Assembly (NCBI GenBank): GCA_015059485.1
Contig: SVAH01000001.1
Span: 62,001 to 126,000, forward strand
Direction: 5' to 3'
DNA length: 64,000 nucleotides
Origin: Bacillota bacterium
Lineage (GTDB): Bacteria > Bacillota_I > Bacilli_A > RF39 > UBA660
Numbering within the stretch: the first letter of the stretch is position 1; each line of letters opens with the position of its first letter. Below the pieces are notes generated by a model. That model saw only the letters and a program-made list of their open reading frames with translations, did not search any database and was not told the DNA's origin. A program made the translations under genes and the position numbers. Positions 13,021-57,456 of the stretch are shown here, piece by piece.

Positions 13021-13603
13021 GAGCTGGTTAATTATAATCGGCTCTTTAATCTTTCTTAGTGGTGTTGGATTAATAACATATGATTATTTATCTAATAGCA
13101 AGGTAGATAAAAAAGAAACTGAATTGTTAGAAGAATTCTATGAAATAGAAGAGGAAATTGAATCTATAGAAGAACCTCAAGTAGTAGAAGAAGTAAAAGA
13201 ACAAATTAAAGTTAATTATATTGCTGTACTTAAAATTCCTAAAATTGGTTTAGAAAGAGGTTTAGTAGATCCAAATAATTATCTTAATAATGTTAATTAT
13301 AATTTAGAATGGTTAGATGGCTCATCTATGCCAGATGAAATAAATGGTAATGTAATAATTGCTGGTCACTCTGGTAGTGCAAGAATATCTTATTTTAGAA
13401 AATTGGATAGATTAGAAATAGGTGATGAAGCTTCTATCATCTATAATGGTAAAACCTATAATTATAAAGTAGTAGATATTTATGATGTTGAAAAAACTGG
13501 TAAAGCAGAAATAGTTAAAGAAAAAAATACTACAACTTTAACATTAATTACATGTAGGCATAATACTAATAGACAGATAGTTGTCATATTTAAACAATTC
13601 TAA
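12992..13603 (+). CDS. Sortase family transpeptidase
   Basis: A 203-residue protein with an N-terminal membrane anchor (SWLIIIGSLIFLSGVGLITY), a Glu-rich stalk and a sortase domain. Catalytic residues are visible: His in VIIAGHSGSA, Cys in TLTLITCRH, Arg in NRQIVVI. The start lies 29 bases inside the adhesin gene in another frame, which implies translational coupling to its substrate. The substrate is presumably the VPNTE signal of that adhesin (inference from adjacency). The short size and TLTLITC motif fit the class A/D/E range; the class is uncertain. Confidence 0.85.
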   Translation: MESKIKRKNKSWLIIIGSLIFLSGVGLITYDYLSNSKVDKKETELLEEFYEIEEEIESIEEPQVVEEVKEQIKVNYIAVLKIPKIGLERGLVDPNNYLNNVNYNLEWLDGSSMPDEINGNVIIAGHSGSARISYFRKLDRLEIGDEASIIYNGKTYNYKVVDIYDVEKTGKAEIVKEKNTTTLTLITCRHNTNRQIVVIFKQF

Positions 13604-27624: not shown

Positions 27625-29346
27625 ATGAAAAATATTAATGAAACCAAATATAATTATATGCTTGAACAAAACAAAGATTATATGGATTTAACAGCTTTGT
27701 CTTTTGGTGATAGAAAAATAACTTATGAAGAAATGCATGATAGAATAGAAAAATATGTTAGATTATTATATTCAAAAGGAGTAAGACAAGGAGATGTTAT
27801 AGGTATTTGTGCATATAATACTCCAGAGTCTGTATATTTACTTTACGCTTTAGATATCATTGGAGCTATAGTTGTAGGATATAGCCCATTTGATAATAAA
27901 GAAAAAACTAAATTAGACATAGAAATGACTAAGCCTAAAATGGTTATTAGTGTTGATATGTGCTACAGTAATTTTAAAGATTGGGAAAAAGCTTTAAACT
28001 TTTCTACAATATTATATTCACCAGTTGATTCGTTAGATGATATGAAAATCAAAGTTGGATACAAATTATTACAATTAAAAAATGGTAATTTTAAGTTATC
28101 AAAAAATAGTAATTTAAAATCATTATTAAAGAAAAATTATAGTGATGTTGATTATGTAAAAGCTCCATTTGAACAAGATGGATTAAGAGACATTTTATTT
28201 ACAGGTGGATCAACAGGAGTTCATAAGGGTGTTGAATTATCAGATAATGGATTAAATTCAGTAGTTGAGGGTATGAATTCTATATTTTCAGCTGAACCAG
28301 GTATGATTCATTTAGGTAATATTCCATTTGGTCATATGGCTTATGGTCGTTCAATATTACATTATGCCTTATGTAATAATATGGAATATGCTTTAACACT
28401 TAAAGCTATGCCAAGTGATCTATATGATGAAATTGTTAGAACTCATGCGAATGCTGCTGTTGGTGGTCCTCCACATTGGGTTTCTTTAATTGAACAACAA
28501 GGAGATAAATTTGTTCCTAGTAGCAGATTAAAACCTGGTTCGCTTAGTGAATTACATTATGCTACTTCTGGTGGTGAAGCTAAAAAAGAATCAACAGAAA
28601 ATGCTATAAATGAAGCTTTAAAATATTGTGGTAGCGATGCTAAATTAGGTGATGGATTAGGAGCAACTGAAACTTGGGCTTCTATGATGATTAATAATGG
28701 TAAAATTCATCATAGTGGAACAGTGGGTGAACCTATATCTACATTAGAAGTTAAATTAGTAGATCCTGATACTGGAAAAGAAGTAAAAGACGGAGAAAAA
28801 GGATTGCTTTATGTTTCTGGACCTTCTGTTATGATTGGATATCATAATAATCCAGAAGAAACTGAAAAAGTAATATCTTATGATGAAAACGGTAAAAGAT
28901 GGATTAATATAGGAGATTTCTTAATGAAGACACCTGATGGTGAGTTTAAATATGTTGGAAGACAAAAAAGAAACTTCGTATCAGGTTGTGATAATATCTA
29001 TCCAGAAGAATTAGAAAATTTATTATTAACCATTCCAGAAATAAGAGAAGTTGTTGTTACACCTATATCTGATGAAATGGTTCAATATATTCCTAGATAT
29101 CATATATCATTATATGATACAGATATTGATTATAAAGATTTAGAAGAAAGAATAAATGCATTAGTTATGTCAAAATTAAATGAAAACTGGTTACCTGGTT
29201 CAATTGCATACTATGATAAACCACTTGAAAGAATGCAAAATTCTAAAGTTAATATTTCATATTATAAGGAATTAGATCAAAAAGCATTAGAAAATAATGA
29301 AATTGATAACACTAGTGCTAAACAATTAAGATTAAGAAAAATATAA
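27625..29346 (+). CDS. AMP-dependent acyl-CoA synthetase/ligase-like protein
   Basis: A 573-residue ANL-superfamily adenylating enzyme. The A3-type phosphate loop is FTGGSTGVHKGVELS (near residue 193), A5 is GDGLGATETW (near 346), and A7 is WINIGDFLMKTPDGEFKYVGRQKRNFVSG (near 433), giving the hinge Asp and Arg. In the C-terminal subdomain a Lys is expected near LERMQNSKVNIS. The substrate is unclear; the fold fits fatty or aromatic acid CoA ligases and stand-alone adenylation domains. No carrier-protein or thioesterase gene is nearby. It has its own promoter and terminator, and conjugation genes lie upstream. Confidence 0.85.
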   Translation: MKNINETKYNYMLEQNKDYMDLTALSFGDRKITYEEMHDRIEKYVRLLYSKGVRQGDVIGICAYNTPESVYLLYALDIIGAIVVGYSPFDNKEKTKLDIEMTKPKMVISVDMCYSNFKDWEKALNFSTILYSPVDSLDDMKIKVGYKLLQLKNGNFKLSKNSNLKSLLKKNYSDVDYVKAPFEQDGLRDILFTGGSTGVHKGVELSDNGLNSVVEGMNSIFSAEPGMIHLGNIPFGHMAYGRSILHYALCNNMEYALTLKAMPSDLYDEIVRTHANAAVGGPPHWVSLIEQQGDKFVPSSRLKPGSLSELHYATSGGEAKKESTENAINEALKYCGSDAKLGDGLGATETWASMMINNGKIHHSGTVGEPISTLEVKLVDPDTGKEVKDGEKGLLYVSGPSVMIGYHNNPEETEKVISYDENGKRWINIGDFLMKTPDGEFKYVGRQKRNFVSGCDNIYPEELENLLLTIPEIREVVVTPISDEMVQYIPRYHISLYDTDIDYKDLEERINALVMSKLNENWLPGSIAYYDKPLERMQNSKVNISYYKELDQKALENNEIDNTSAKQLRLRKI

Positions 29347-29372
29347 GAAATTGCTTCTTATATTTTTTTTGT
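29339..29372 (+). terminator. Intrinsic terminator
   Basis: A perfect 11-bp stem AAATATAAGAA (29339-29349) with TTCTTATATTT (29355-29365), then T run; it overlaps the stop codon of the ligase gene. An extended -10 (TATAAT 29393-29398) for the next gene follows. Confidence 0.9.
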
Positions 29373-29420
29373 AAAAAAATGTAAAAATGTGGTATAATTA
29401 TTATAGTATGGGGTGAAATC

Positions 29421-31571
29421 ATGGGAATAGGTGTTTATTTTTCAACAAGTTCATTTATAATAATAACCATTTTAACATATATATTTTATTCTAAAAAAAG
29501 GGTAGAAAATGTTGAAACAAAAACATATGGTAAAATATTATTCTTGACTTTATTTGGATTATTTATGGAAGTTGCTACATGTATTTGGTTTGTAACTGGT
29601 GTTAGTTTGGATAATGTTCTTTATCAATTTGCTTCTAAATTAACTTCTTCATATTATATGATGTGGAGTGGATTATTTGTAAATTATTTAATTGATATAT
29701 GTAATATTAATAAAACTTTTAAAAAAGGATTTAATATATTTAATATAATTGGATTTGTAGCAATATTAATCCTTCCAATATCTTATAATACAGCTAAAAT
29801 GGGTGTCCTTCCTATAGGACCTGCAATATATTTAACATATCTAATATGCTTAATTTATGCTATTCTTGATTTAGTTATTTGCTTAAAATACAGAAAGAAA
29901 ATAGCAAGTTCTAAATTTACCCCAGTATATACTTTATTGCTTTTAGGTGGTATTGATATTGTGTTAGGTGTATTCTTCCCATCACTTTTCTTAATCGGTT
30001 ATGTATATTCATTAATTGTAATTATAATGTATTTTACAATTGAAAATCCTGATATTAAATTAGTAAAACAAATGCAACTTGCTAAAGATCAAGCTGAGAG
30101 AGCTAACAATGCAAAAAGTGATTTCTTATCAAGTATGAGTCACGAAATAAGAACACCTTTAAATGCAATTGTTGGATTTAGCGAAGATATACAAAGTCAT
30201 AAAGACACAGCTGATCCTGAAATTGTTGAAGACGCTGATTATATTTTAGAAGCATCTAAAACATTACTTGAAATAGTTGGAAATATACTTGATATTAATA
30301 AAATTGAAAGCAATAAGATGGAAATTACAGAAGTTGAATATAATTATAGAGAAGAAATTGAACAACTTGCTAAAATAGATGCTACAAGAATTGGTGAGAA
30401 AAATATTAATTTTAAAGTTACTTTTGCACCAGATATTCCTTATAAATTAATAGGTGATAAAACACATATTAAAGAAATAATAAATAATTTACTTACTAAT
30501 GCAATTAAATATACAGATCAAGGTGAAATTGAGTTAAATACAAAATGTATTAATAAAGATAATAATTGTAATTTAATTATAAGTGTAAGAGATACTGGTA
30601 AAGGTATCAAAGCTGAAAATATAAATAAATTATTTACGAAATTTGAAAGATTAGATGCAGAAAAAAATTCCACTACAGAAGGAACAGGGTTAGGTTTAGC
30701 TATAACAAAAGCACTTGTTGAAATGATGGGTGGAAAAATTAATGTTCAATCACAATTTGGAAAAGGTTCAATATTTATGGTACAAATTCCTCAAAAAATT
30801 AGTCAAATGGTTAATCCAGATCAAACAGTTCAAATTGATATTACATCTATTAAACAAAATATGGATCAACAGCCAGTAGTATCATCAACACCTGAAGTTG
30901 CTCAGCCAACAAGTCCTGTTATTCAACAAGTTCAATCAGTACAACCTGAAGAACCTGTTGCAACAGTTACACCTATTGAAGAATCTACAACAACTTCACA
31001 AACAGGAAAGAAGATATTAATTGTTGATGATAATAAATTAAATATTAAGGTTGCTCGTAGAGCTTTAGATGGATTTGGTTTTGAAATAGATGAATGTTAT
31101 GACGGACAAGAATGTTTGGATAAAGTAGTAAATGGAAATGAATATGATTTAATTCTAATGGATATAATGATGCCAAATATGAGTGGTGAAACAGCAATAG
31201 CAAAATTAAAAGAAAAACCTAACTTTAATATTCCTACTATAGCTTTAACAGCTGATGCTGTAGCAGGAGCTAGAGAGAAATATCTAGGTGAAGGATTTGT
31301 AGATTATATTGCTAAACCATTTAGCAAAGATCAAATAAAAGAAAAATTAGATGTAGTTTTTGGTGAAAGTTCAGAACCTAAAATCGAACAACAAGATAAT
31401 AATACAGATGAAGTTGTAAAAGCTCTTTCAGATATGTCTAAACCAGTTAATGAAATAGATGTTCCAAATCAAATTGAATCAGAACCTAAATATGATCCAA
31501 ATGTAGATAGATTCAAAGATGTTGAACCTCATGTGTTTGGTGGAAAAGAAGATAATAAAGGTAATGAGTAA
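29421..31571 (+). CDS. Hybrid sensor histidine kinase with C-terminal receiver
   Basis: A 716-residue protein. About seven hydrophobic segments lie in residues 1-210, then a HisKA domain with [16 protein letters not shown] (phospho-His near residue 239). A HATPase_c domain follows with N box [10 protein letters not shown]1 DTGKGI, and G2 GTGLGLAI. A Pro/Gln-rich linker (about 475-530) leads to a receiver domain with [16 protein letters not shown] (phospho-Asp near 582) and the Lys in YIAKPFSK. No output domain or separate regulator is adjacent, so the phosphoryl group probably goes on to a distant partner. Confidence 0.93.
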
Positions 31572-32197: not shown

Positions 32198-34948
32198 ATG
32201 GGTACATATGAGAGTGAATCTAAATTAGAAGATAGAATGATAGACCAATTAAGAAAACAAGGATATCAATATATTGAAATAAATGATGTAACCGAATTAG
32301 AAAGAAATTTTAGGGAACAAGTAAACCTACATAATAGAGCAGAATTAAAGTTTAAAGACTTATCTGATAAAGAATTTGAAAGACTAATGGTAAAAATATC
32401 TGGTAAAGGTGTTTTTCAGTCTGCAAAAGAATTAAGACAAAAGCAAGATATACAAAGAGATGATGGTTCAATTGTTTATATTGAATTGTTTAATACAAAA
32501 GATTGGTGTAGAAATAACTTTCAAGTAACTCATCAAACTACTGTTGAAGGTAAATATACTAATAGATACGATGTAACTATTTTAATTAATGGACTTCCTC
32601 TTGTTCAAATTGAATTAAAACGAAGAGGAATAGATATGAAAGAAGCTTTTAATCAAATTAAAAGATATAAAAGACATTCATATTTTGGATTATATAAATT
32701 TATTCAATTATTCGTTATAAGTAATGGTGTAGATACAAAGTATTTTGCTAATGGAGATCAAGAACTTAATTATGGATTTACATTCTATTGGACTGATGTA
32801 GATAACAATAGAATAACTAATCTAGAACAATTCTGTGTATTCTTCTTAGATAGATGTCATATTGGTAAAATGATAGCTAGATACATGATTATAAATGAAA
32901 CTGAAAAAATGTTAATGGTTATGAGACCATATCAAGTATATGCTGTAGAAAATATTGTATCTCGTGCTTTAGATACAAATAATAATGGTTATGTATGGCA
33001 TACAACAGGTTCAGGTAAAACTATAACTTCATTTAAAACAAGCCAAATTTTATCTTTAGAGCCATCTATTAATCAGGTATTTTTCTTAGTTGATAGAAAA
33101 GACTTAGACAAACAAACCTTAGATGAATTTAATAAATTCGATCCAGGTTGTGTTGATATGACAAATCAAACTGATAAATTAATACAACAAATTAAAGATA
33201 GTACAAAACCATTAATAATTACTACAATTCAAAAAATGGCTAATGCATGTTCAAATCCTAAATATGCGAGTGTTATGGAAAAATATAAAGATTTAAAAAC
33301 TATCTTTATAATTGATGAATGTCATAGATCTCAATTTGGGGATATGCATAGACAAATATCTAAAACATTTAGTAAAGCTCAATATTTTGGATTTACTGGT
33401 ACTCCAAGATTTAAAGAAAATCCATCACAAGATGGTAGAAGTACAGCAGATATTTTTGAAAAATGTTTACATACATATTTAATTAAAGATGCTATTAAAG
33501 ATGAGAATGTTTTAGGATTCTCAGTTGATTATATGAAGTTTGTTGAATTCAACGGACAAACAGAAGAAGATTTAATGGTAGAAGGAATAGATACTGATGA
33601 AGTATTTATGGCTGATGATAGAGTAAGACTTATTGCACAAGATATTATTGATCATCATAATGTTAAAACTAGAGATAGAAAATATAATGCTTTATTTACT
33701 GTTTCATCAATACCTTTATTAATTAAGTATTATGATATGTTTAAATCATTAAATCATGATTTAAAGATTGGTGCTATATTTACTTATGGTGCTAATGAAG
33801 ATTTAGATAAGAATCCAGAACATTCAAGAGAAGCACTTGATAGATGTATGAAAGATTATAACAAGATGTTCAAAACTAATTTTAGTACTCATACATTTGA
33901 TTCTTATTTTAGAGATATATGTAAGAGAATTAAAAATACTGAAATTGATATTGTTATAGTAGTTAATATGTTATTGACAGGATTTGATGCTAAGAGATTA
34001 AATACTTTATATGTAGATAAACCATTAAAGTATCATGATCTTATTCAAGCATTCTCAAGAACTAATAGAGTAGAATCTGATACTAAACCATTTGGTAATA
34101 TAGTATGTTATAGAACTACTAAAGCTAGAGTAGATGAAGCTGTTAAATTATTCTCACAAACAAATAGTGTAGATACAGTTATTATGGCTCCATATGAAAC
34201 ATACTTAGAAAAATTCAATAATGCAGTAAATAAATTATTAGAAATTACTCCAGTAGTTGAAAGTGTAGATTCACTTGAAAGTGAAGATGATATAAAAGAA
34301 TTTATAGTCGCATTTAGAGAAGTAGCTAAAATATTAGTTAGTTTAAAAACATTTAATCAATTTGATTTAGATAATACTGATTCAATGATTAATACTCAAA
34401 TGTTTGAAGATTATAAATCTAAGTATTATGAATTATATAGAAAACTATCAAATGATAAAGAAAAGAGTTCTATTTTGAATGATGTAACATTCTCGCTAGA
34501 ACTAATACAAACTGATAAAATTAATGTTTCTTATATTTTAAATTTAATTAGAAATGTTGATTTATCTAATGAAGAACAAAAACAAAAAGATATAGCTGAT
34601 ATTCAAAGTAAATTAGTTAATATTACAGATGATGAATTATTCTTAAAAGCTGAATTAATTAAGAGTTTCTTATCTTCAATTTTACCAGCATTAAAAGAAG
34701 AAGATTCAATAGATGAAGCTTTCGATAAGCATATGAATAAAGAAAGACAAAAAGAAATTGAAAAATTTGCTACTGAAAATAATATTAACTTAGAAACACT
34801 TGAAACAATAATAAACGAATTTGAATATAGTGGTATTTTCCCAGATGGATTAATAGGACAATCTATTGAAGCTCCATTCTTGAAGAAAATATCAATTATT
34901 GAGAATATTAAAGGATTCGTTAAGAATCTATTAAAGAAATATATGTAG
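32198..34948 (+). CDS. hsdR: Type I restriction endonuclease subunit R
   Basis: A 916-residue HsdR. The nuclease core is near residues 125-150 (PLVQIELKRRG supplies E-x-K). The translocase has Walker A VWHTTGSGKTITSF near 267, DEAD-box variant IIDECHRSQFG near 370, GFTGTPRF, and the later TGFDAKRLNTLYVDKPL and QAFSRTNR motifs. The helical C-terminal region would bind the methylase. ATG 32198 with AGGTGG 7 bases upstream is preferred; a frame open to 32168 starts inside the promoter. It acts in a complex with HsdM and HsdS. Confidence 0.95.
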   Translation: MGTYESESKLEDRMIDQLRKQGYQYIEINDVTELERNFREQVNLHNRAELKFKDLSDKEFERLMVKISGKGVFQSAKELRQKQDIQRDDGSIVYIELFNTKDWCRNNFQVTHQTTVEGKYTNRYDVTILINGLPLVQIELKRRGIDMKEAFNQIKRYKRHSYFGLYKFIQLFVISNGVDTKYFANGDQELNYGFTFYWTDVDNNRITNLEQFCVFFLDRCHIGKMIARYMIINETEKMLMVMRPYQVYAVENIVSRALDTNNNGYVWHTTGSGKTITSFKTSQILSLEPSINQVFFLVDRKDLDKQTLDEFNKFDPGCVDMTNQTDKLIQQIKDSTKPLIITTIQKMANACSNPKYASVMEKYKDLKTIFIIDECHRSQFGDMHRQISKTFSKAQYFGFTGTPRFKENPSQDGRSTADIFEKCLHTYLIKDAIKDENVLGFSVDYMKFVEFNGQTEEDLMVEGIDTDEVFMADDRVRLIAQDIIDHHNVKTRDRKYNALFTVSSIPLLIKYYDMFKSLNHDLKIGAIFTYGANEDLDKNPEHSREALDRCMKDYNKMFKTNFSTHTFDSYFRDICKRIKNTEIDIVIVVNMLLTGFDAKRLNTLYVDKPLKYHDLIQAFSRTNRVESDTKPFGNIVCYRTTKARVDEAVKLFSQTNSVDTVIMAPYETYLEKFNNAVNKLLEITPVVESVDSLESEDDIKEFIVAFREVAKILVSLKTFNQFDLDNTDSMINTQMFEDYKSKYYELYRKLSNDKEKSSILNDVTFSLELIQTDKINVSYILNLIRNVDLSNEEQKQKDIADIQSKLVNITDDELFLKAELIKSFLSSILPALKEEDSIDEAFDKHMNKERQKEIEKFATENNINLETLETIINEFEYSGIFPDGLIGQSIEAPFLKKISIIENIKGFVKNLLKKYM

Positions 34949-34959
34949 GAGGTTAAAAT

Positions 34960-36522
34960 ATGTCTAGAGAAGAAAAACAACAATCACAACAAGCAGAACT
35001 TCAAAAACAATTATGGAGTATTGCTAATACCCTAAGGGGTAATATGGATGCGAATGATTTTAAAAACTATATTCTTGGATTAATCTTCTACAGATATTTA
35101 TCTGAAAATCTAGTTAATTATGTTAATTCAACATATTTAAAAGATGATGAAATAGATTATGAAGAAGCTTGGAATAAAGAAGAATATAGAGAAGCATTAA
35201 AATCACAATTAATTAATGATTCAAATATGGGATATTTCTTAGAAGCTGATTATTTATGGAGTACATTAATTAAGAAAATTAAGACTGGTAAATTTGATAT
35301 TTCAATGTTAGCTAAAGCAGTTAATACAATATCTGAATCAACTTTAGGAAATGAATCTGAAGATGATTTTGAAAATCTATTTGAAGATATGGATTTAAAT
35401 AACTCTAAATTAGGTAGAGGAGAAGCTGAAAGAACTAAATTAATATCTACTATTATGCTTAAGATAGATGATATTGATTTCCATCATGAAGATGCTGAAA
35501 TTGATGTATTAGGTGATGCATATGAATATTTGATTTCAAATTTCGCTGCATCAGCTGGTAAAAAAGCAGGAGAGTTCTATACTCCACAACAAGTATCAAG
35601 AATACTTGCTAAATTAGTAACTTTAAATAAATCAAAATTACAAAGTGTTTATGATCCAACTTGTGGATCTGGTTCATTACTATTAAGAGTAGGTAAAGAA
35701 ACTAAAGTTACATCATATTATGGTCAAGAGTTCAATTCAACTACTTACAACTTAGCTCGAATGAATATGTTATTACATGGTATTTCATTTAAACATTTTG
35801 ATATTAAAAATGATGATACACTTGAAAGACCAAGACATATTGATATGAAGTTTGATGCCATCGTTGCAAATCCTCCATATTCAGCTCAATGGAGTGCAGA
35901 TCCTAAATTTATTGAAGATGAGAGATTTAGTGCCTATGGTAAGTTGGCTCCTAAATCAAAAGCTGATTTTGCATTTATTCAACATATGATTTATCAATTA
36001 TCTGATAATGGAACTATGGCTGTAGTTTTACCACATGGAGTTCTATTTAGAGGTGCTTCTGAAGGAACTATAAGAGAATACTTAATTAAAGAAAAGAATT
36101 ATTTAGATGCTGTAATTGGATTACCAGCAAATATATTCTATGGAACAAGTATTCCAACTTGTATTCTTGTATTTAAAAAATGTAGAGAAAATGAAGAAAA
36201 TATTTTATTTATAGATGCATCTAAAGATTTTGAAGCTGGAAAGAATCAAAACAGATTAAGAGATGAAGATGTAGATAAGATTATAGAAACATACAAAAAT
36301 AGAGTAGAAGTAGAAAAATATTGTCATGTTGCTCCTATGTCAGAAGTAGCAGAAAATGATTATAATCTTAATATTCCTAGATATGTAGATACATTTGAAG
36401 AGGAAGAAGAAATTGATATTAAAGCTGTACAACAAGATTTAAAACAAATTGATAAAGAAATAGCAGAAGTAGATAAAGAATTAAATGTATATCTAAAAGA
36501 ATTAGGATTAGATGAAATATAA
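34960..36522 (+). CDS. hsdM: Type I restriction-modification methyltransferase subunit M
   Basis: A 520-residue N6-adenine methylase. SAM motif DPTCGSGSLLLRVGK is near residue 228 and catalytic NPPY is within DAIVANPPYSAQW near 300. The N-terminal helical domain is intact (QLWSIANTLRGNMDANDFKNYILGLIFYRYL). RBS AGGAGG; 11 bases from hsdR. Unusually, the neighbouring hsdS genes are on the opposite strand or far downstream, so S is not cotranscribed with M in the present arrangement. Confidence 0.95.
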   Translation: MSREEKQQSQQAELQKQLWSIANTLRGNMDANDFKNYILGLIFYRYLSENLVNYVNSTYLKDDEIDYEEAWNKEEYREALKSQLINDSNMGYFLEADYLWSTLIKKIKTGKFDISMLAKAVNTISESTLGNESEDDFENLFEDMDLNNSKLGRGEAERTKLISTIMLKIDDIDFHHEDAEIDVLGDAYEYLISNFAASAGKKAGEFYTPQQVSRILAKLVTLNKSKLQSVYDPTCGSGSLLLRVGKETKVTSYYGQEFNSTTYNLARMNMLLHGISFKHFDIKNDDTLERPRHIDMKFDAIVANPPYSAQWSADPKFIEDERFSAYGKLAPKSKADFAFIQHMIYQLSDNGTMAVVLPHGVLFRGASEGTIREYLIKEKNYLDAVIGLPANIFYGTSIPTCILVFKKCRENEENILFIDASKDFEAGKNQNRLRDEDVDKIIETYKNRVEVEKYCHVAPMSEVAENDYNLNIPRYVDTFEEEEEIDIKAVQQDLKQIDKEIAEVDKELNVYLKELGLDEI

Positions 36523-36524
36523 TA

Positions 36525-36568
36525 TAAAAAGGACTATACAAACATATCTTGCATAAGTCCTTTTTTTA
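36525..36568. repeat. 44-bp hsdS 3'-end repeat, copy A
   Basis: Identical to 37137-37180 (same orientation) and, with one mismatch, inverted relative to about 40568-40611. It encodes the conserved C-terminus KKGLMQDMFV and includes a terminator-like dyad. Confidence 0.9.
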
Positions 36569-37130
36569 GTTCTGATAATTTATCTAATTTTTGTGTTTCG
36601 CATAATATTTTTTTATCAATTAATTCAATATTATTTACAATTTTATTTTGAATATCTAAAGATGGAAGTTTTATGTTAAATTTTAAGAAATCTTCAGGTG
36701 AAACAGCCATTCTTTCATATACTGTTCCTTGTTCATATTTTCTAACTGCATTAATGAAATTATTTCTTGTTGTATAGTATTTTATGTATTTTGGATTAAC
36801 TGTTGTATTTATTTCAAATGTTACATATATTGGTGAGAATATTGCAGATCCATACTCATTTAGACAAATAACTCCAAATTTTAAATTTGCTGGATTATAA
36901 CATAAATCATTTAACTTTGTGATTTTGTATTGTTTGTCTTCAGATTTTACTAAAAAATCTCTATTATATCTTTCACCTTTATCATATATACCATCTTTAG
37001 ATAAAGTTACATGAGGGTATTCTAATCCTTTTTCTGAATATAACTTTCTTTCCTTTAATATTTTTTTAAGACTAATTTCTGGATAATCTTCTCTAAATAC
37101 ATCTTCCAAAAGTCCTTTTTTAAATAAAGA
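36534..37130 (-). pseudogene. hsdS: Silent partial hsdS cassette (second target-recognition domain)
   Basis: An open frame of 191 codons from ATG 37109, and homology back to about 37130 (LFKKGLLEDVFREDYPE in frame). It encodes one target-recognition domain and the C-terminal conserved helix (IELIDKKILCETQKLDKL) ending KKGLMQDMFV. It lacks the first domain, a promoter and an RBS. Its upstream edge retains only about 15 bases of the central repeat. It is best read as a stored half-gene that can be shuffled into an expressed hsdS by recombination at the 44-bp repeat or central repeat. Confidence 0.8.
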
Positions 37131-37136
37131 AGATAC

Positions 37137-37180
37137 TAAAAAGGACTATACAAACATATCTTGCATAAGTCCTTTTTTTA
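37137..37180. repeat. 44-bp hsdS 3'-end repeat, copy B
   Basis: A perfect direct copy of 36525-36568. It forms the 3' end of the full-length minus-strand hsdS and the boundary with the silent cassette. Confidence 0.9.
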
Positions 37181-38312
37181 ACTCACTTAATTTACTATAT
37201 TTACTTTCTTCTAATGAAATCTTGCTATCAATAAGTGATAAAATTCTACCTATTTTATTTTGTTCATTCATATTTGGTACACTTATTGTTATTTCACCAA
37301 ATAAATCCATATTAAGATTTCTTCTTACTATACTTGCACCTTGCTCTGAGGAAATCATATATTCATATAATGCTCTTGGTGATTTAATCCAATTTTTAAA
37401 ATAATCGATGTTAACGATATCTGTTTTAATATCAAATATTTTATAAGATGGAGAAACAATACCAATTTCGTATTTGTTATTAATATTTATATTCCCCATC
37501 CATAGATTTTGTGGACTTAATACTAATTGATTTCTCTTTAATATTTTGTATCCTATATTATTTTCACTGGCAGCTTGTTTATTAAAATATTCGCTTTGCA
37601 AAAATATACCTTTGGCAGTAGATGATAATATTTCATATTGATTATTAACTGTTGTTTTTTCATTACATTCCATTAAAATGTCTTTAAGGGGTATTTTTTT
37701 ATACGAATCATCATTTTTAATTTGATTTATTTGACTTAACTTAAATAACTTAAGGTCTTCAATTTTCTTAGATTGTAATTCTATTTTTTTATCTATAAGT
37801 GATAGAAAATTGGAGATCTTATTTTCCTCATCTATGTTAGTTATTGAAAACTTATAACTTCCATATTCTTGAGAATTTATACCAGGTTGTCCAGATCTCA
37901 TGGACATAATCCTTATCCAATTATTATATTTATTTAATTTAGTTTGTTGAAAAATAAAATTTGAATTATGATTTATAATACTTGCTTTAATTAAGAATCC
38001 AGCATAATAAAGCTTTCCATCATTTGAATTATATAAATAAGTTTTTCCTGTACTTGCACCTGTTCTCGCAAATAATATATCATTTTCTTTAACTAAAAAT
38101 TTATCTTCTAAGATTCCATCTGGTGATACCACATCTTTATTTGAATACCTATTTGAATTTTCATCTATATCAGTTATTCTAATATATTTATTTTCTCCAT
38201 CATATTCTTTGGAAGCAGAATTCATTCCATATGCTATTTCAGATGTAATATTTTTCAACTCAGTTTCTTCCCATTCGTTGTTAAAATTTTTGAATCTCAA
38301 TTTAGGTTTCAT
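37146..38312 (-). CDS. hsdS: Type I specificity subunit S, probably the expressed copy
   Basis: A 388-residue HsdS with two target-recognition domains (about 1-150 and 205-350), each followed by a conserved helix. The first helix region is SNFLSLIDKKIELQSKKIEDLKLFK and the second is GRILSLIDSKISLEESKYSKLSELKKG. A promoter (-35 at 38390-38395, -10 at 38368-38373, minus strand) points at it. RBS GGTGGTGAG precedes ATG. It determines the sequence recognised by HsdM/HsdR. Its 5' end, centre and 3' end are all repeated in inverted orientation in the plus-strand hsdS. Confidence 0.93.
   Translation of the reverse strand: MKPKLRFKNFNNEWEETELKNITSEIAYGMNSASKEYDGENKYIRITDIDENSNRYSNKDVVSPDGILEDKFLVKENDILFARTGASTGKTYLYNSNDGKLYYAGFLIKASIINHNSNFIFQQTKLNKYNNWIRIMSMRSGQPGINSQEYGSYKFSITNIDEENKISNFLSLIDKKIELQSKKIEDLKLFKLSQINQIKNDDSYKKIPLKDILMECNEKTTVNNQYEILSSTAKGIFLQSEYFNKQAASENNIGYKILKRNQLVLSPQNLWMGNININNKYEIGIVSPSYKIFDIKTDIVNIDYFKNWIKSPRALYEYMISSEQGASIVRRNLNMDLFGEITISVPNMNEQNKIGRILSLIDSKISLEESKYSKLSELKKGLMQDMFV
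37741..37814. repeat. 74-bp central hsdS inverted repeat, left copy
   Basis: Perfect inverted copy of 39963-40036. It encodes the conserved spacer helix between the two recognition domains, so inversion here swaps first domains between the two hsdS genes. Confidence 0.95.
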
Positions 38313-38342
38313 TATCTCACCACCAGTCCTTAAGTTTAATAA
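38308..38342. repeat. 35-bp hsdS 5'-end inverted repeat, left copy
   Basis: Perfect inverted copy of 39426-39460; covers the RBS and start codon of the minus-strand hsdS. Confidence 0.95.
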
Positions 38343-38367
38343 AAAGTTACTAACTTAACTAATAATA

Positions 38368-38395
38368 ATTATATCACACTTTTATCGATTTTGAA
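38368..38395 (-). promoter_or_regulatory. Promoter of the minus-strand hsdS, inside the invertible segment
   Basis: On the minus strand TTCAAA (38390-38395), 16-base spacer, TATAAT (38368-38373). It lies between the two 35-bp repeats, so inversion at those repeats would turn it toward the plus-strand hsdS. Confidence 0.65.
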
Positions 38396-38411
38396 CATTA
38401 TAAAAAGTATT

Positions 38412-39377
38412 TCAAATACTTTCTTGAAATACTTTGCATATCATATCAATACATTTTTTCTTTTGAGATAATCTAGGATGTACATATAGGTTTAATGTTA
38501 TATTAACATTAGCATGACCTAATAACTCACTTACAGTCTTATAATCCACACCTAAAGAGATACAATTTGTGGCAAATGTGTGTCTTAATGAATGAAAATT
38601 AAATTGTTTTATTTTGACTTGTTTTAATACTTTGTTAAAGTATTTTCTATATGTTCTTGGTTCAAGATATTTACTTGAACCAGTAATTATATAATCGTCA
38701 CCTTTAGTTTTAAGTTTTTTTAATAATTCTAAAAATTCTTTGTTAATAGGTATTTCTCTATTAGCATTTTTTGTTTTTGGAGTTGTTATTATCACTTTAG
38801 AAACATTATTATCTTTATCTTTAATATAAACTCTTTGGATTGTTTTATTTACAGATAATATATTCTTTTTGAAGTCTATATCATTCCATTGTAATGCACA
38901 TAATTCACCAATTCTAAGACCTGAATATAAGGATATTAATAATCCTATATTTCTATTAGTTAAGTTTTCTAAAACATAATTTGTAAGTTTGTTTTGTTCA
39001 TGTTTTGATAGGATATATATTTTTGAATCTTTATTATCTTTTGGATAATTAAAAGTCAATTCAAAATGTCTTATTTTTTCTTCATTTATTGCTTTTCTCA
39101 AACTTCCTTTAATAATGATTGTTATATCCTTAATTGTTTTTTCAGATAATCCACCAGATCCATCTTTTCTTCCATTTTTAAATAGATTTAAAAGAAAATC
39201 TTGAATAGTTTTATGATTTAAATCTTGAATATAGATATTTCCTAGATTAGGAATTATATGATTGAAAATATTATTTGAATAATTAGCATATGTTGATTCT
39301 TTTATATATTCTTTCTTATCAATCAACCATTCATAAATCCAATCACTATATAAAATCTTATTTTTTTTAGCAAACAT
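38412..39377 (-). CDS. Tyrosine recombinase within the hsdS locus (putative inverter)
   Basis: A 321-residue phage-integrase-family recombinase. An N-terminal SAM-like core-binding domain is followed by a catalytic domain with SGLRIGEL (Arg I), HSLRHTFA (His-x-x-Arg), LGHANVNITLNLYVHP (His/Tyr nucleophile). It lies between two oppositely oriented hsdS genes inside perfect inverted repeats, the arrangement of hsdS inversion systems in streptococci and other Bacillota. RBS GGAGGAATATT. It probably catalyses the inversions, although RecA could also act on the 74-bp repeats. Confidence 0.9.
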   Translation of the reverse strand: MFAKKNKILYSDWIYEWLIDKKEYIKESTYANYSNNIFNHIIPNLGNIYIQDLNHKTIQDFLLNLFKNGRKDGSGGLSEKTIKDITIIIKGSLRKAINEEKIRHFELTFNYPKDNKDSKIYILSKHEQNKLTNYVLENLTNRNIGLLISLYSGLRIGELCALQWNDIDFKKNILSVNKTIQRVYIKDKDNNVSKVIITTPKTKNANREIPINKEFLELLKKLKTKGDDYIITGSSKYLEPRTYRKYFNKVLKQVKIKQFNFHSLRHTFATNCISLGVDYKTVSELLGHANVNITLNLYVHPRLSQKKKCIDMICKVFQESI

Positions 39378-39425
39378 ATAATATTCCTCCTTTCCAAAGA
39401 AATATTATAGTTGTTCATTATCTCA

Positions 39426-39460
39426 TTATTAAACTTAAGGACTGGTGGTGAGATAATGAA
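39426..39460. repeat. 35-bp hsdS 5'-end inverted repeat, right copy
   Basis: Perfect inverted copy of 38308-38342; contains RBS and start ATG (39456) of the plus-strand hsdS. Confidence 0.95.
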
Positions 39461-40601
39461 TGTTCCCAAAATAAGATTTAGCGAATTTACTTCTGAATAT
39501 AAAAAATATAAATTTAAAGATGTAGCTACATTGTATAGAGGAAGTTCACCAAGACCAATTATTAATTTTATAACTAAGTCTGATGATGGAGTTAATTGGA
39601 TAAAGATTGGTGATGTTAATGAAAATGATACATATATAAATAAAACAAGTGAAAAAATCACAGTTGAAGGTTCAAAAAAATCTAGAAAAGTTTATAAGAA
39701 CGATATTATTTTATCTAACTCAATGAGTTTTGGAAGACCGTATATTTTAAATATTGATGGATGTATTCATGATGGTTGGTTCGTAGTTAGAGATTATAAT
39801 GAAAAATTAGTTCAAAAATATTTATATCATTTTATGTCTTCTCCAGTTATTCAAAAACAATATAAAAAATTATCTGCTGGTGGAGTTGTAAGTAATATAA
39901 GTAGTGATTTAGTTTATAGCGTTGATATAAATATTCCTTCAAAAGAAGAACAAATTAAGGTTTCCAATTTTCTATCACTTATAGATAAAAAAATAGAATT
40001 ACAATCTAAGAAAATTGAAGACCTTAAGTTATTTAAAAAAGGATTAATTCATCAAATGAAGAAGAATAGTAATAACTGGTCTGAATATAAAATATCTGAA
40101 ATATTTAAAATTACTAGAGGAGTAGTAATTCCTAAAACTGACTTATTAGATAATAAAACTACAAAATATCAATATCCAGTTTATTCATCTCAAACATCTA
40201 ATAATGGAATTCTAGGTTATGATACAAAGTATGATTTTGATGGAAAATATTTAACGTGGACTACAGATGGAGCTAATGCTGGGAAAGTGTTTTATCGTAA
40301 TGGAAAATTTAGATGTACTAATGTTTGTGGTGTTTTGTACAATGATAATAACAAATATGTTGATGAGTTAACAGCTGAACTCTTAAACTATGAAACACCA
40401 AAACATGTGTCTTATGTAGGTAACCCTAAATTAATGAATAATGTTATGGGAGATATTAAAATTTTTCTACCTGATAGTAATGAATCTCATAGGGTAAGTA
40501 ATATATTATTAGTAATAAATAATAAAGTTTTATTAGAAACTGATAAGTTAAATAAATTAAATAAACTAAAAAAAGGACTTATGCAAAATATGTTTGTATA
40601 G
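39456..40601 (+). CDS. hsdS: Type I specificity subunit S, second copy (probably silent now)
   Basis: A 381-residue complete HsdS. Both recognition domains differ from the minus-strand copy, but it shares the central helix (NFLSLIDKKIELQSKKIEDL) and the C-terminal KKGLMQNMFV. ATG 39456 lies in the 35-bp repeat with the same RBS; a frame open from 39411 has no RBS. I see no good promoter between the recombinase gene and this start, so in the present orientation it probably serves as a reservoir. It ends 6 bases from the convergent XRE gene. Confidence 0.9.
   Translation: MNVPKIRFSEFTSEYKKYKFKDVATLYRGSSPRPIINFITKSDDGVNWIKIGDVNENDTYINKTSEKITVEGSKKSRKVYKNDIILSNSMSFGRPYILNIDGCIHDGWFVVRDYNEKLVQKYLYHFMSSPVIQKQYKKLSAGGVVSNISSDLVYSVDINIPSKEEQIKVSNFLSLIDKKIELQSKKIEDLKLFKKGLIHQMKKNSNNWSEYKISEIFKITRGVVIPKTDLLDNKTTKYQYPVYSSQTSNNGILGYDTKYDFDGKYLTWTTDGANAGKVFYRNGKFRCTNVCGVLYNDNNKYVDELTAELLNYETPKHVSYVGNPKLMNNVMGDIKIFLPDSNESHRVSNILLVINNKVLLETDKLNKLNKLKKGLMQNMFV
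39963..40036. repeat. 74-bp central hsdS inverted repeat, right copy
   Basis: Perfect inverted copy of 37741-37814, encoding SNFLSLIDKKIELQ and the following helix. Confidence 0.95.
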
Positions 40602-40607
40602 TCCTTT

Positions 40608-41033
40608 TTATTTTAATATATCGTATATTGATAGTTTGTGATTATAACAAATGGTGTATAATGTAAGTGAGGTTACTAAAAATTTACCAGACTCATATCC
40701 ACTATAAGTAGGTTGAGTAATCATACATTCATCAGCAATTTGTTGTTGAGTTAAACCAAGTTTGTTTCTAATTTTCTTTAAATTAGAGCCGACTTGTTTT
40801 TTATTAAGTTTGTTTATTTCTGTGTAATTGTCATTTTTTCTTCTTAATCCCATTACATAGTCTATAGAATATTTATACAGATTAGAGAACTTTATCATTT
40901 TAGGTAGTGGCATTGGATCTTGATTTGTTTCCCAACCAGTAACAGTTTTTCTTGATACCCCAAAAACAAATCCAAGTTCTTCTTGAGTCATCTCTAATTC
41001 TTCTCTACAATATTTTAAATTGTTATTTAGCAT
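40608..41033 (-). CDS. XRE-family regulator with two helix-turn-helix domains
   Basis: A 141-residue protein with two HTH_3 units: NNLKYCREELEMTQEELGFV (residues 3-60) and VGSNLKKIRNKLGLTQQQIA (77-135). Tandem HTH in one short chain is less usual and could bridge two operators. It converges on the hsdS at 40601 and diverges from the gene at 41136, so both could be targets. Confidence 0.85.
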   Translation of the reverse strand: MLNNNLKYCREELEMTQEELGFVFGVSRKTVTGWETNQDPMPLPKMIKFSNLYKYSIDYVMGLRRKNDNYTEINKLNKKQVGSNLKKIRNKLGLTQQQIADECMITQPTYSGYESGKFLVTSLTLYTICYNHKLSIYDILK

Positions 41034-43806: not shown

Positions 43807-45507
43807 ATGGCTGGTAGAGGTAAGAAAAAACTTAGTACAAATTCTACTGTTGCTAATTGGCTAGTAGGTATTTATACAAGAAGATCTTTTGATGATAATG
43901 AAGATAAAGAATCTAATACTATTACAAATCAAAAAGAAATGATTAATAGTTTTATATCAAAAGAAAAGAATATGACAATAGTCGATTATTATGTTGACGA
44001 TGGATATACTGGTACTACATTTGATAGACCAGGATTTCAAGAGATGATGAAAGATATATCTGATGGAAGAATTAATACTATTATAGTAAAAGATTTATCT
44101 AGATTAGGAAGAAATAGTCTAGAAGTAGGTAAATATATTGAAGAGATATTTCCTATATATAATATAAGGATAATAGCTATTAATGATAATGTGGATTCGT
44201 TTAAAAGGCCAGAATCTATAAATGATTTAATGGTTCCAATTAAAAATTTAATAAATGAAAGTTATGCCAGAGACATATCTAAAAAAGTTTCTTCTGCTTA
44301 TTATACGATGGCTAGCAATGGTAAGTATGTAGCTGGTACTTCTCCTTATGGTTATACATTTGATGAGAATGATAAACATCATCTTGTAGTTGATCCAGAT
44401 GAAGTTGAAATTGTTAGATTAATATTTAATATGGCATTAAAAGGTGATGGCAGAGTTAAGATAACAAAATATCTAAATGATCATAATATTTTATGTAGAA
44501 AAGAAATACAGCGAAGAAAAAAGTATAAATTATCATTAGAACCATTAGAAGAAACAATTAAGTATAAATGGTCAACTTCTACAATAGGAAGAATGTTAAC
44601 AAGTGAAATATATATAGGTAATTTAACTCAATTGAAAACGAAAAGAGAAAGTTTTAAAAATCATAAAGTAATAAATGTAGCAAAAGAGGATTGGGTAAGA
44701 TTTGAAAAAACACATGAACCTATTATAACAAAAGCTGATTTTGATAAAATACAAGGCTTAATTAAAGTAAATGCTAAAAGATTATCAAATACTGGAGAAA
44801 GAACATATTCAATATATAATGGTGTTTTAAAATGTGCTGATTGTGGTAGAGCAATGTATAAACAAGAAGACAAAAGAGGAAATCGCCAGCTATCAAATTA
44901 TTTCTGTAATACATATTTATATATAAGCAAAACTTCTTGTAGCTCACACAAGATAAAAACGGATGATTTAAATGATATTGTTTTAGAATCCGTGCAATTA
45001 CAAGTAAAGTTAGTAATTGAATTAGATAGAAGTTTAAAAAGACTGTTTTTTAAAAATAATAGAGAAACAGTTGAAAGCGAATATAAAAACAATACTAGAA
45101 TAGCAGAAATAAAGATAAATAATTTAAAGAATAAAAAAATTCAATTATATGAAGATTGGAAATTCAATAATATAGATAAAGATGAATTTATAAATCAATC
45201 TAAACTTATTGAAGAAGACATTAAATTAGTTGAAGAAAAGCTAGAATTAATAACTAAAACATATAGGGATAATATAAAAATGATTAAAAGAAATGATTAT
45301 TGGATAAATCATTATAGAAGAAATAAAAAAATAAAAAAACTAACTAGAGAAGTTATAAAAGAATTAATTGATGTTATTTATATAACTGCTGATGGTAATG
45401 TAGATATTCGTTTCAAGTATAGCAATGAATATAAAGAGTTAGTAACATACTTAGAGAATGAAGGAGCTGTTAAGAAATGTCAAAATGGAGAGTTGGTATT
45501 TACTTAA
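43807..45507 (+). CDS. Large serine recombinase 1
   Basis: A 566-residue large serine recombinase. The resolvase domain has GIYTRRSFDD (nucleophile Ser27), ITNQKEMI, DDGYTGTTFDRPGFQEMM and VKDLSRLGRN. A recombinase domain follows (SPYGYTFDEND onward), then a zinc ribbon LKCADCGRAMYK with a later CNTYLY and C-x-x-H pair, and a C-terminal coiled coil. Such enzymes integrate and excise elements at short core sites. RBS AAAGGAG. It overlaps the second recombinase by 31 bases. Confidence 0.94.
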   Translation: MAGRGKKKLSTNSTVANWLVGIYTRRSFDDNEDKESNTITNQKEMINSFISKEKNMTIVDYYVDDGYTGTTFDRPGFQEMMKDISDGRINTIIVKDLSRLGRNSLEVGKYIEEIFPIYNIRIIAINDNVDSFKRPESINDLMVPIKNLINESYARDISKKVSSAYYTMASNGKYVAGTSPYGYTFDENDKHHLVVDPDEVEIVRLIFNMALKGDGRVKITKYLNDHNILCRKEIQRRKKYKLSLEPLEETIKYKWSTSTIGRMLTSEIYIGNLTQLKTKRESFKNHKVINVAKEDWVRFEKTHEPIITKADFDKIQGLIKVNAKRLSNTGERTYSIYNGVLKCADCGRAMYKQEDKRGNRQLSNYFCNTYLYISKTSCSSHKIKTDDLNDIVLESVQLQVKLVIELDRSLKRLFFKNNRETVESEYKNNTRIAEIKINNLKNKKIQLYEDWKFNNIDKDEFINQSKLIEEDIKLVEEKLELITKTYRDNIKMIKRNDYWINHYRRNKKIKKLTREVIKELIDVIYITADGNVDIRFKYSNEYKELVTYLENEGAVKKCQNGELVFT

Positions 45508-47045
45508 GACTATCATCTGATGACGATGATGATAAATTAGAATCAAATAGTATTACAAACCAAAGAAGTTTAATTAACTATTATTTAGTTGATAAAAAAG
45601 ATATAACTGTATATAAATGTTATGCAGATGATGGATATACAGGAACTGATTTTGATAGACCAGGATTTCAAGAGATGATGGACGATATTAGAAATAGAAA
45701 AATAAATTGTGTAATTGTAAAAGATTTATCTAGACTAGGAAGGAATTATATTAGTGTAGGTCATTTTATAGATGATACACTACCAAGATATAAAATTAGA
45801 TTTATTGCAATAAACGATAATGTGGATTCGTTTAAAAGGCCAGAGTCTATGAATTCATTGGAAGTATATTTTAAAAATCTAATGAATGAAAGTTTTGCTA
45901 AAGATATATCAAAAAAAGTTAGAACATCATTTGAAATAAGTAAGAAGAATGGAAACTTTATAGGAGTAGTAGCTCCATTTGGGTATTTAAAAGATCCTTA
46001 TGATTGTCATAAATTTATTATAGATAAAGAAGCCGAAAAAATTGTAAAGAAAATATTTAAACTTGCTTTAAACGGAATTAGTAGGCAGGATATAGCTAAT
46101 GAATTAAATAATAGTCATATTCCAACTCCAAGTAAATATATGAAAAGTTTTTGTAAAAAAAAGTCATCAATAATTTTAGAAGAATGGAATGTTGATTCAA
46201 TTGATAATATACTAAAAAATAGAACTTATATTGGAAATTTAATTCAAGGTAAAACAACTAGAATAAGTCATAAAAAACATAACATTGTAACTGTTCCAGA
46301 AGATGAATGGATAGTTGTTCCAGATCATCATAAAGCTATTATAGAAGAAGAAATATTTGAGCAAGTTCAAAATATCATATATAATCGTAATTCAAGAGTT
46401 AGTTCAAATGGTAAGTTCTATAAATATACAGGTTATTTAAAATGTGCTGATTGTAATTCTACTATGAAAAAATTCAGTCGACCAAATAGCAATAGTATAT
46501 TCTTTTATTGTAGTACATATATAAAAAATAAAGAATGTCATAAACATTACATTACTGAAAATGATTTGGATAATACATTGTTAGAAATTATTAATAAGTA
46601 TATCGAAGTAATAACAAATCTATCTGAAAAGATAAATAATAATATATCTATGTCATATATGGAATACGAAAAAGAGAATAAAGAATTTAAATTAATTGAA
46701 TTAGATAAAGAAGAACAAAAATATAGAAAGCTAATTAATGAGGTAAAAGATGATTATAAGAATGATTATATATCTAAGGGTGATTATGAATTATTTAAAG
46801 ATAAATATATGTTTCAATTAAATAAAATTTTGTTAGAAATAGAAGAATTAAATAATAGTAAATCAAATCAAGAAAATATTGATCGAATCAATAAAATCAA
46901 AAAGATAGGAAAGATAGATTATATAGATAGAAATATAATTATAGAATTAATTGATAGAATTCTAATACATGAATGTGGAGACATAGAAGTTATTTTTAAA
47001 TATAAAAATTTATACGAAGATGCTCTTAGGTATCTCAAATCATAG
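45477..47045 (+). CDS. Large serine recombinase 2
   Basis: A 522-residue paralogue of the preceding protein. Nucleophile Ser13 is in GIYLRLSSDD, with DDGYTGTDFDRPGFQEMM and VKDLSRLGRN. The zinc ribbon LKCADCNSTMKK pairs with YCSTYIKNKECHKH, and a coiled-coil region follows. Parts of its DNA are identical to recombinase 1 (for example around GTGGATTCGTTTAAAAGGCC at about 44192 and 45830). It ends only 55 bases before rbgA. A tandem overlapping pair recalls CcrA/CcrB of SCC elements, where two serine recombinases act on one chromosomal target. Confidence 0.94.
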   Translation: MSKWRVGIYLRLSSDDDDDKLESNSITNQRSLINYYLVDKKDITVYKCYADDGYTGTDFDRPGFQEMMDDIRNRKINCVIVKDLSRLGRNYISVGHFIDDTLPRYKIRFIAINDNVDSFKRPESMNSLEVYFKNLMNESFAKDISKKVRTSFEISKKNGNFIGVVAPFGYLKDPYDCHKFIIDKEAEKIVKKIFKLALNGISRQDIANELNNSHIPTPSKYMKSFCKKKSSIILEEWNVDSIDNILKNRTYIGNLIQGKTTRISHKKHNIVTVPEDEWIVVPDHHKAIIEEEIFEQVQNIIYNRNSRVSSNGKFYKYTGYLKCADCNSTMKKFSRPNSNSIFFYCSTYIKNKECHKHYITENDLDNTLLEIINKYIEVITNLSEKINNNISMSYMEYEKENKEFKLIELDKEEQKYRKLINEVKDDYKNDYISKGDYELFKDKYMFQLNKILLEIEELNNSKSNQENIDRINKIKKIGKIDYIDRNIIIELIDRILIHECGDIEVIFKYKNLYEDALRYLKS

Positions 47046-56008: not shown

Positions 56009-56058
56009 ATCATTAAATTTAGAAATCCAAGTAAATTGGAAACATAAGGAGAATAATT

Positions 56059-57429: not shown

Positions 57430-57456
57430 TATTAAAACAAGAAAAGAGTTGATAAA

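What the first reader, a model, noticed from the sequence alone, without database searches (positions are those of the whole stretch)
36525..40611. Phase-variable type I restriction locus with three sets of repeats and a resident recombinase
Seen: perfect inverted repeats of 35 bp (38308/39426) and 74 bp (37741/39963), plus 44-bp 3' repeats in three copies (36525, 37137 and, inverted with one mismatch, 40568). These flank two full hsdS genes, one silent half-gene and a tyrosine recombinase. Inversions would give several S proteins, hence different methylation patterns. hsdS inversion is known in Bacillota; the three-repeat layout with a silent cassette inside a conjugative element is notable.
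Basis: partly seen in the sequence, partly recalled or inferred. Interest (0 to 1): 0.65.

Follow-up and report, generated by a model that had tools for sequence, protein, structure and literature searches.

The report
Inside-out switching restriction-modification locus
A mobile element in an uncultured Bacilli genome carries a DNA-marking (restriction-modification) system whose target-recognition genes can be cut and flipped by their own recombinase, and the flippable piece appears to carry the on-switch, so each flip would decide which recognition gene is used; such systems are known, but this back-to-back layout is a new variant.

Summary
In detail: exact 35-bp and 74-bp inverted repeats and three 44-bp 3' repeats surround two hsdS genes, a half hsdS and a tyrosine recombinase. 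It is an inverting type I R-M locus of the pneumococcal cod/SpnIII kind (2 x 3 TRD combinations). New here: (1) a 14-bp core, CCTTAAGTTWWWWA, occurs exactly four times in the 1.4-Mb genome, once in each IR1 and IR2 copy; arms are shared, spacers differ between repeat classes but match within each pair, also in a relative whose spacers have changed. (2) Nine related loci keep HsdM/HsdR/recombinase but carry different TRDs, with the recombinase in either orientation and the half gene at either end. (3) The layout is inside-out: hsdS 5' ends face the recombinase and no hsdS lies in the hsdRM operon. A promoter-like sequence sits at the recombinase's tail in 9/9 loci and its head in 0/7; the head side can form a hairpin over the hsdS start. 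Best reading: the recombinase segment is a Hin-like promoter switch selecting one hsdS, combined with TRD shuffling. Live inversion, expression and methylation are untested. New variant of a known kind.

The parts
32198..34948 (+). hsdR, restriction subunit (916 aa)
   Evidence: TIGR00348 461.6 bits, cut-off 284.55; Pfam HSDR_N, EcoR124_C
34960..36522 (+). hsdM, methyltransferase subunit (520 aa)
   Evidence: TIGR00497 491.5 bits, cut-off 242.75
36525..36568 (.). 44-bp 3' repeat, copy 1: C-terminal coding end of the half hsdS and terminator-like hairpin on both strands, between hsdM and the hsdS block
   Evidence: identity; folds z -5.4 on minus strand, -3.8 on plus strand
36534..37127 (-). 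half hsdS: second-domain (TRD2) cassette without a first domain
   Evidence: frame LFKKGL...KKGLMQDMFV; related half genes match TRD2 of full hsdS genes in other loci
37119..37135 (-). half-gene junction TATCTTCTTTATTTAAA: same spacer TTATTTA as IR2, left arm CCTTAAG replaced by TATCTTC(T)
   Evidence: found in all seven loci that have a half gene
37137..37180 (.). 44-bp 3' repeat, copy 2: end of hsdS S1
   Evidence: fold z -4.9
37146..38312 (-). hsdS S1 (388 aa), on the tail side of the recombinase; predicted ON in this configuration
   Evidence: PF01420; promoter upstream
37741..37814 (-). IR2 copy a, with core CCTTAAGTTATTTA at 37742-37755
   Evidence: exact 74-bp match to 39963-40036; core
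38308..38342 (+). IR1 copy a, with core CCTTAAGTTTAATA at 38328-38341, hsdS ribosome site and start codon
   Evidence: exact 35-bp match; core
38368..38395 (-). predicted promoter of the tail-side hsdS: TTCAAA, 16 nt, TATAAT with TG before it (TGATATAAT)
   Evidence: extended -10 in 9/9 related tail leaders, 0/7 head leaders
38404..38435 (-). terminator-like hairpin at the recombinase gene end
   Evidence: z -3.6; also in L036, L037, L104
38412..39377 (-). tyrosine recombinase (321 aa), resident invertase
   Evidence: PF00589 and PF14659; catalytic motifs SGLRIGE, TPKTK, HSLRHTF, LGHANV, LNLYVHP
39404..39432 (-). promoter-like sequence of the recombinase, first hexamer overlapping IR1
   Evidence: TTAATA, 17 nt, TATAAT
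39413..39461 (+). head-side hairpin covering ribosome site and start codon of the head-side hsdS (TTCATTATCTCA / TGAGATAATGAA)
   Evidence: fold z -3.0; 12-nt complement in 0/2000 random flanks
39426..39460 (-). IR1 copy b, core at 39427-39440
39459..40601 (+). hsdS S2 (380 aa), on the head side of the recombinase; predicted OFF in this configuration
   Evidence: PF01420 115.7 bits
39963..40036 (+). IR2 copy b, core CCTTAAGTTATTTA at 40022-40035
40567..40610 (.). 44-bp 3' repeat, inverted copy with one mismatch: end of hsdS S2
   Evidence: fold z -6.6

Best explanation
[quoted passage not shown] The locus's own tyrosine recombinase acts at CCTTAAG cores. Recombination between the two IR2 sites (spacer TTATTTA) swaps first domains between the two hsdS genes; recombination between an IR2 site and the half-gene junction (same spacer) swaps second domains and moves the half gene to the other end; recombination between the two IR1 sites (spacer TTTAATA) flips only the recombinase gene. 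Unequal spacers keep IR1 from recombining with IR2. Both hsdS genes point away from the recombinase and towards terminator-like 3' repeats, so none joins the hsdRM operon in any configuration. The recombinase segment carries one outward promoter at its tail and a start-covering hairpin at its head, so one hsdS is on and the other off, and inversion changes which. Two first domains and three second domains give six possible S proteins, probably one made at a time. Shown: anatomy, core sites and their uniqueness, variation between loci, conservation. Inferred: that the recombinase acts at these cores, promoter activity, translational block, live inversion, methylation change.
For: Exact repeats beyond chance. 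CCTTAAGTTWWWWA occurs four times in the genome, all in IR1/IR2 (0.11 expected in the window), and is nearly confined to the locus in relatives. Spacers match within each pair even in L104, where both have changed. Recombinases 52-60% identical and not beside hsdS lack the core within 2.5 kb. Related loci: conserved HsdM/HsdR/recombinase, exchanged TRDs; recombinase in both orientations and half gene at both ends; half-gene cassettes found as TRD2 of full hsdS elsewhere at 94, 81 and 64%. Tail promoter 9/9, head 0/7; head hairpin; recombinase terminator.
Against: No reads: only one configuration is seen in this genome and no alternative junction elsewhere in it. Natural variants are between genomes, not within a strain. 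Promoter scan of the AT-rich region finds no more promoter-like sites than shuffles (39 against 43), so the promoter claim rests on conserved position alone. The head hairpin is weak in L036/L037, and duplex energies were only moderately unusual. The related loci are not fully independent.
Confidence: 0.7

Rival explanations
1. Inverting type I locus as above, but both full hsdS genes are expressed together, so the cell carries two specificities at once and IR1 inversion has no regulatory role.
For: Both hsdS genes are complete with ribosome site and start codon. In S. suis SsuCC20p an hsdS downstream of the recombinase is transcribed besides the one downstream of hsdM (PMC10790761). AT-rich DNA offers many weak promoters.
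Against: The extended -10 is on the tail side only, 9/9 against 0/7; the head leader can close over the start codon in the window clade and, with different letters, in L104.
Confidence: 0.22
2. The locus is frozen: the recombinase or its sites no longer work, and the repeats persist because they encode conserved hsdS segments; differences between loci come from ordinary homologous exchange.
For: IR2 and the 3' repeats lie in coding sequence that is conserved in hsdS genes anyway; no within-strain variant was found.
Against: IR1 lies largely in non-coding DNA and is exact; IR2 is exact over 74 bp although the flanking domains differ; recombinase is intact with its catalytic motifs; cores are unique in the genome; orientation and half-gene position differ between loci with 96-100% identical recombinases.
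Confidence: 0.06
3. The recombinase is only the integrase of a small passenger element that happened to land between two hsdS genes; hsdS rearrangement is RecA-dependent.
For: Most 36-60% identical relatives are not next to hsdS.
Against: The recombinase sits between the two hsdS genes in every locus of the clade with that stretch assembled; these recombinases form one clade (92/82); two more distant relatives, L098 and L114, also lie beside hsdS; the core pattern is tied to the locus.
Confidence: 0.02

Closest known systems
Pneumococcal cod / SpnD39III (Spn556II) locus with PsrA/CreX
   Same: hsdR, hsdM, two full-length or partial hsdS genes plus a half-size donor, resident tyrosine recombinase, three repeat classes of different length, six hsdS alleles; a shared short core within the different repeats (IR1-like sequences in IR2 and IR3) (PMC7096588, PMC4948785).
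   Different: There the active hsdSA is fixed behind hsdM and co-transcribed with hsdRM, and the other copies are silent donors. Here no hsdS is in the hsdRM operon; both full hsdS genes have their 5' ends at the recombinase. Sequence identity to PsrA was not measured.
Listeria monocytogenes ST8 / CC4 inverting hsd locus
   Same: [quoted passage not shown] PMC7662400).
   Different: There the 5' repeats span 3.3 kb and the central ones 2.3 kb (5' ends outermost), with the active hsdS in the hsdRM operon and the other copy lacking a start codon and promoter. Here the 5' repeats span 1.15 kb and the central ones 2.3 kb (5' ends innermost).
S. suis SsuCC20p
   Same: XerD-dependent TRD shuffling; an hsdS lying downstream of the recombinase gene rather than of hsdM is transcribed and methylates (PMC10790761).
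   Different: There another hsdS lies directly behind hsdM and 14-bp IR sets flank TRDs; no promoter inversion described.
Mycoplasma pulmonis hsd loci with HvsR
   Same: Tyrosine recombinase-driven inversions between oppositely oriented hsdS genes (as cited in PMC4948785 and PMC11062135).
   Different: The primary papers were not held, so their promoter arrangement could not be compared; this is the main gap in the novelty check.
Hin-type promoter inversion (Salmonella flagellar switch)
   Same: Works alike: the recombinase gene lies inside the invertible segment and a promoter near one end fires outward (own knowledge; inversion switch mentioned in PMC7096588).
   Different: Not a member: Hin is a serine recombinase; here a tyrosine recombinase, two target genes, and TRD exchange at further sites.

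Membership tests
[quoted passage not shown]
[quoted passage not shown]
[quoted passage not shown]
   between related genomes only: recombinase orientation, half-gene end, TRD combinations differ
[quoted passage not shown]
   no reads or methylomes; single configuration in the assembly
Pneumococcal cod/SpnIII-type locus | Resident tyrosine recombinase and a common core within repeats of different length | tested here: met
   CCTTAAG core in IR1 and IR2; for the 3' repeats no such core was found
Pneumococcal cod/SpnIII-type locus | Active hsdS directly behind hsdM, co-directional with it | tested here: not met
   hsdM is followed by a convergent half gene or hsdS in every locus of the clade with hsdM assembled; met in L098 and L114
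Tyrosine recombinase | Catalytic domain with R, K, HxxR, H and Y | tested here: met
   PF00589, motifs
Hin-like promoter-inversion switch (mechanism) | Recombinase gene inside the invertible segment and outward promoter at one end only | tested here: inconclusive
   gene position met; promoter asymmetry by sequence only, 9/9 against 0/7
Integrative and conjugative element (context) | Relaxase, T4SS ATPase, coupling protein and integrase in one segment | tested here: met
   attachment sites not found

The most novel reading that the evidence does not exclude
A type I specificity switch uncoupled from the hsdRM operon, in which one invertible cassette does two jobs: it shuffles S domains, and it selects which S gene is made through a promoter at its tail and an RNA hairpin that covers the start codon at its head. 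In all seven loci with a half gene the hsdS beside it lacks the right-hand AAAAAGG arm at its central site, and the half-gene site lacks the left-hand CCTTAAG arm, which may prevent loss of a cassette by recombination between these directly repeated sites.
Probability: 0.45. Interest if true: 0.6.

Novelty: new variant of a known kind. Interest (0 to 1): 0.45.

Why it matters
If right, choice of specificity and shuffling of specificity are controlled by one recombinase and one segment of about 1.1 kb, with a compact site code (same arms, class-specific spacers) that can be tested directly. It suggests how a mobile element can change its DNA mark while always keeping one S protein in production, and it gives a sequence signature for finding such loci in uncultured Bacilli.

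Tried and rejected
Recombinases 36-60% identical in the same family: most are not near hsdS, so they served as controls, not members. IMG/VR scans gave only L098 as a useful hit; plasmid and phage searches gave no recombinase above 60% identity. The own genome was searched for alternative junctions: none. A first TRD table used a wrong frame for the half genes and was redone. A duplex-energy shuffle test was not very discriminating; a longest-complement test was used besides. A 21-bp IR in L108 flanks a 545-aa ORF that looks like a transposase, not an inverton. ICE attachment sites as direct repeats: nothing above 12 bp. The idea that the 44-bp repeat is purely a recombination site was set aside, since it is also C-terminal coding sequence and a strong hairpin. 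No structure prediction was run: the protein families are clear from sequence.
Full report
What is there. The repeats are real: the 35-bp IR1 and 74-bp IR2 are exact inverted matches, and the 44-bp 3' repeat occurs three times, one copy inverted with one mismatch (extended forms). None of 200 Markov shuffles of the region gave any exact inverted pair of 24 bp or more. They surround a half hsdS, two full hsdS genes and a tyrosine recombinase with all catalytic motifs, just downstream of hsdR and hsdM. The surrounding element has a MobL relaxase, a TraG/VirB4-type ATPase, a coupling protein and two large serine recombinases.

The recombination code. Both IR1 copies and both IR2 copies contain CCTTAAG followed by a 7-nt spacer: TTTAATA in IR1, TTATTTA in IR2. 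The pattern CCTTAAGTTWWWWA occurs four times in the whole 1.4-Mb genome, all in these four repeats, against 0.11 expected in the window. In relatives it is again almost confined to the locus (one extra site in G438). In L104 both spacers have changed, to TTTGTTA and TTATATA, yet each pair still matches internally. Nine recombinases 52-60% identical and not beside hsdS have no CCTTAAG within 2.5 kb. This is what a recombinase that binds CCTTAAG and demands equal spacers would need; that it does so is inferred. For PsrA, inversion at IR2 and IR3 depends on IR1-like sequences in them (PMC7096588).

Natural variants. Nine loci were compared: window, L033, L034, L035, L036, L037, L043, L104, L113 (L044, L102 and L103 are repeat fetches of L034, L035 and L036). 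HsdM, HsdR and the recombinase are conserved (HsdM 88-100%), while S proteins mostly fall to 25-45%. The recombinase is opposite to hsdM in six and parallel to it in two (L036, L104). The half gene lies next to hsdM in four (window, L035, L036, L043) and at the far end in three (L033, L034, L037); L104 has none. Inversion between the half-gene junction and the central site of the distal hsdS converts one half-gene position into the other. Half-gene cassettes of one locus appear as the second domain of a full hsdS in another (94%, 81%, 64%), and the L037 half begins like the L036 tail-side hsdS. First domains also travel alone: window S1 and L043 share 95% of the first domain but not the second. 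These are differences between genomes; switching within a strain is not shown.

The inside-out layout. In the pneumococcal and Listeria loci the expressed hsdS is fixed behind hsdM (PMC7096588, PMC7662400). Here the hsdS 5' ends face the recombinase and the 3' ends face outwards, so repeat spans run 1.15 kb (5'), 2.3 kb (central) and 3.5-4.1 kb (3'), whereas in Listeria ST8 the 5' span is the larger, 3.3 against 2.3 kb (PMC4783014). No inversion between the mapped sites can bring an hsdS into the hsdRM operon. The recombinases with this layout form one clade (92/82), with the conventional loci L098 and L114 outside it.

Expression. A terminator-like hairpin ends the recombinase gene (z -2.4 to -3.6 in four loci). 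After it, on the tail side, an extended -10 (TGRTATAMT) is present in 9 of 9 loci, 29-42 nt from the core, and in 0 of 7 head sides (0.7% by chance per leader). On the head side the flank can pair with the hsdS ribosome site and start codon: 12 nt in the window (0/2000 random), 10 nt of different sequence in L104 (12/2000), weak in L036/L037. In the window's configuration S1 is therefore predicted on and S2 off, and an IR1 inversion would swap them. The 44-bp 3' repeat folds as a strong hairpin on both strands and probably ends both hsdM and hsdS transcripts. All of this is inferred from sequence; a generic promoter scan finds no excess in this AT-rich DNA, so the weight lies on conserved position.

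An asymmetry at the half gene. In all seven loci with a half gene, the hsdS directly upstream of it lacks the AAAAAGG arm to the right of its central site, while the half-gene junction lacks the CCTTAAG arm; where the other full hsdS is assembled (six loci) it has both. The two one-armed sites are in direct orientation, so recombination between them would delete a cassette; the missing arms may prevent that. This is a suggestion from few, partly related loci.

Verdict. The class is known and common: about 6% of type I systems in REBASE have duplicated hsdS with inverted repeats (PMC7394358). The inside-out arrangement with an apparent promoter cassette was not found in the papers held, but the primary Mycoplasma pulmonis papers could not be read, so novelty is graded as a new variant of a known kind.

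Noticed in passing
window 54260-59214: Two aspartyl-tRNA synthetase-like genes (54260-56008 and 57457-59214) with long identical stretches flank an asparaginyl-tRNA synthetase-like gene (56059-57429), which suggests a duplication.
   Followed up: no
window 10237-13603: The ICE carries a large surface protein with thioester and SpaA-like domains, followed by a sortase.
   Followed up: no
window 27625-31571: Between the transfer genes and the R-M locus lie an acyl-CoA ligase-like gene and a hybrid histidine kinase, apparent ICE cargo.
   Followed up: no
window 43807-47045: Two overlapping large serine recombinases directly before an rbgA-like GTPase gene (47091), probably the ICE integration enzymes; no att repeat above 12 bp was found.
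   Followed up: partly
L105 8407-14692 and L107 8110-14392: A 58-59% identical recombinase stands divergently next to a 1726-aa surface-like protein gene in two genomes, without CCTTAAG sites or clear inverted repeats; purpose unknown.
   Followed up: partly
L106, L108, L109, L110: Recombinases 57-58% identical sit at a conserved place next to a gene of about 312-342 aa and a DnaB/DnaD-like gene in related genomes, so they look chromosomal rather than mobile.
   Followed up: no
L114 8806-10062: In the conventional-layout relative the second hsdS reads as two ORFs, perhaps a broken silent copy; its IR2 has the same core CCTTAAGTTATTTA.
   Followed up: partly
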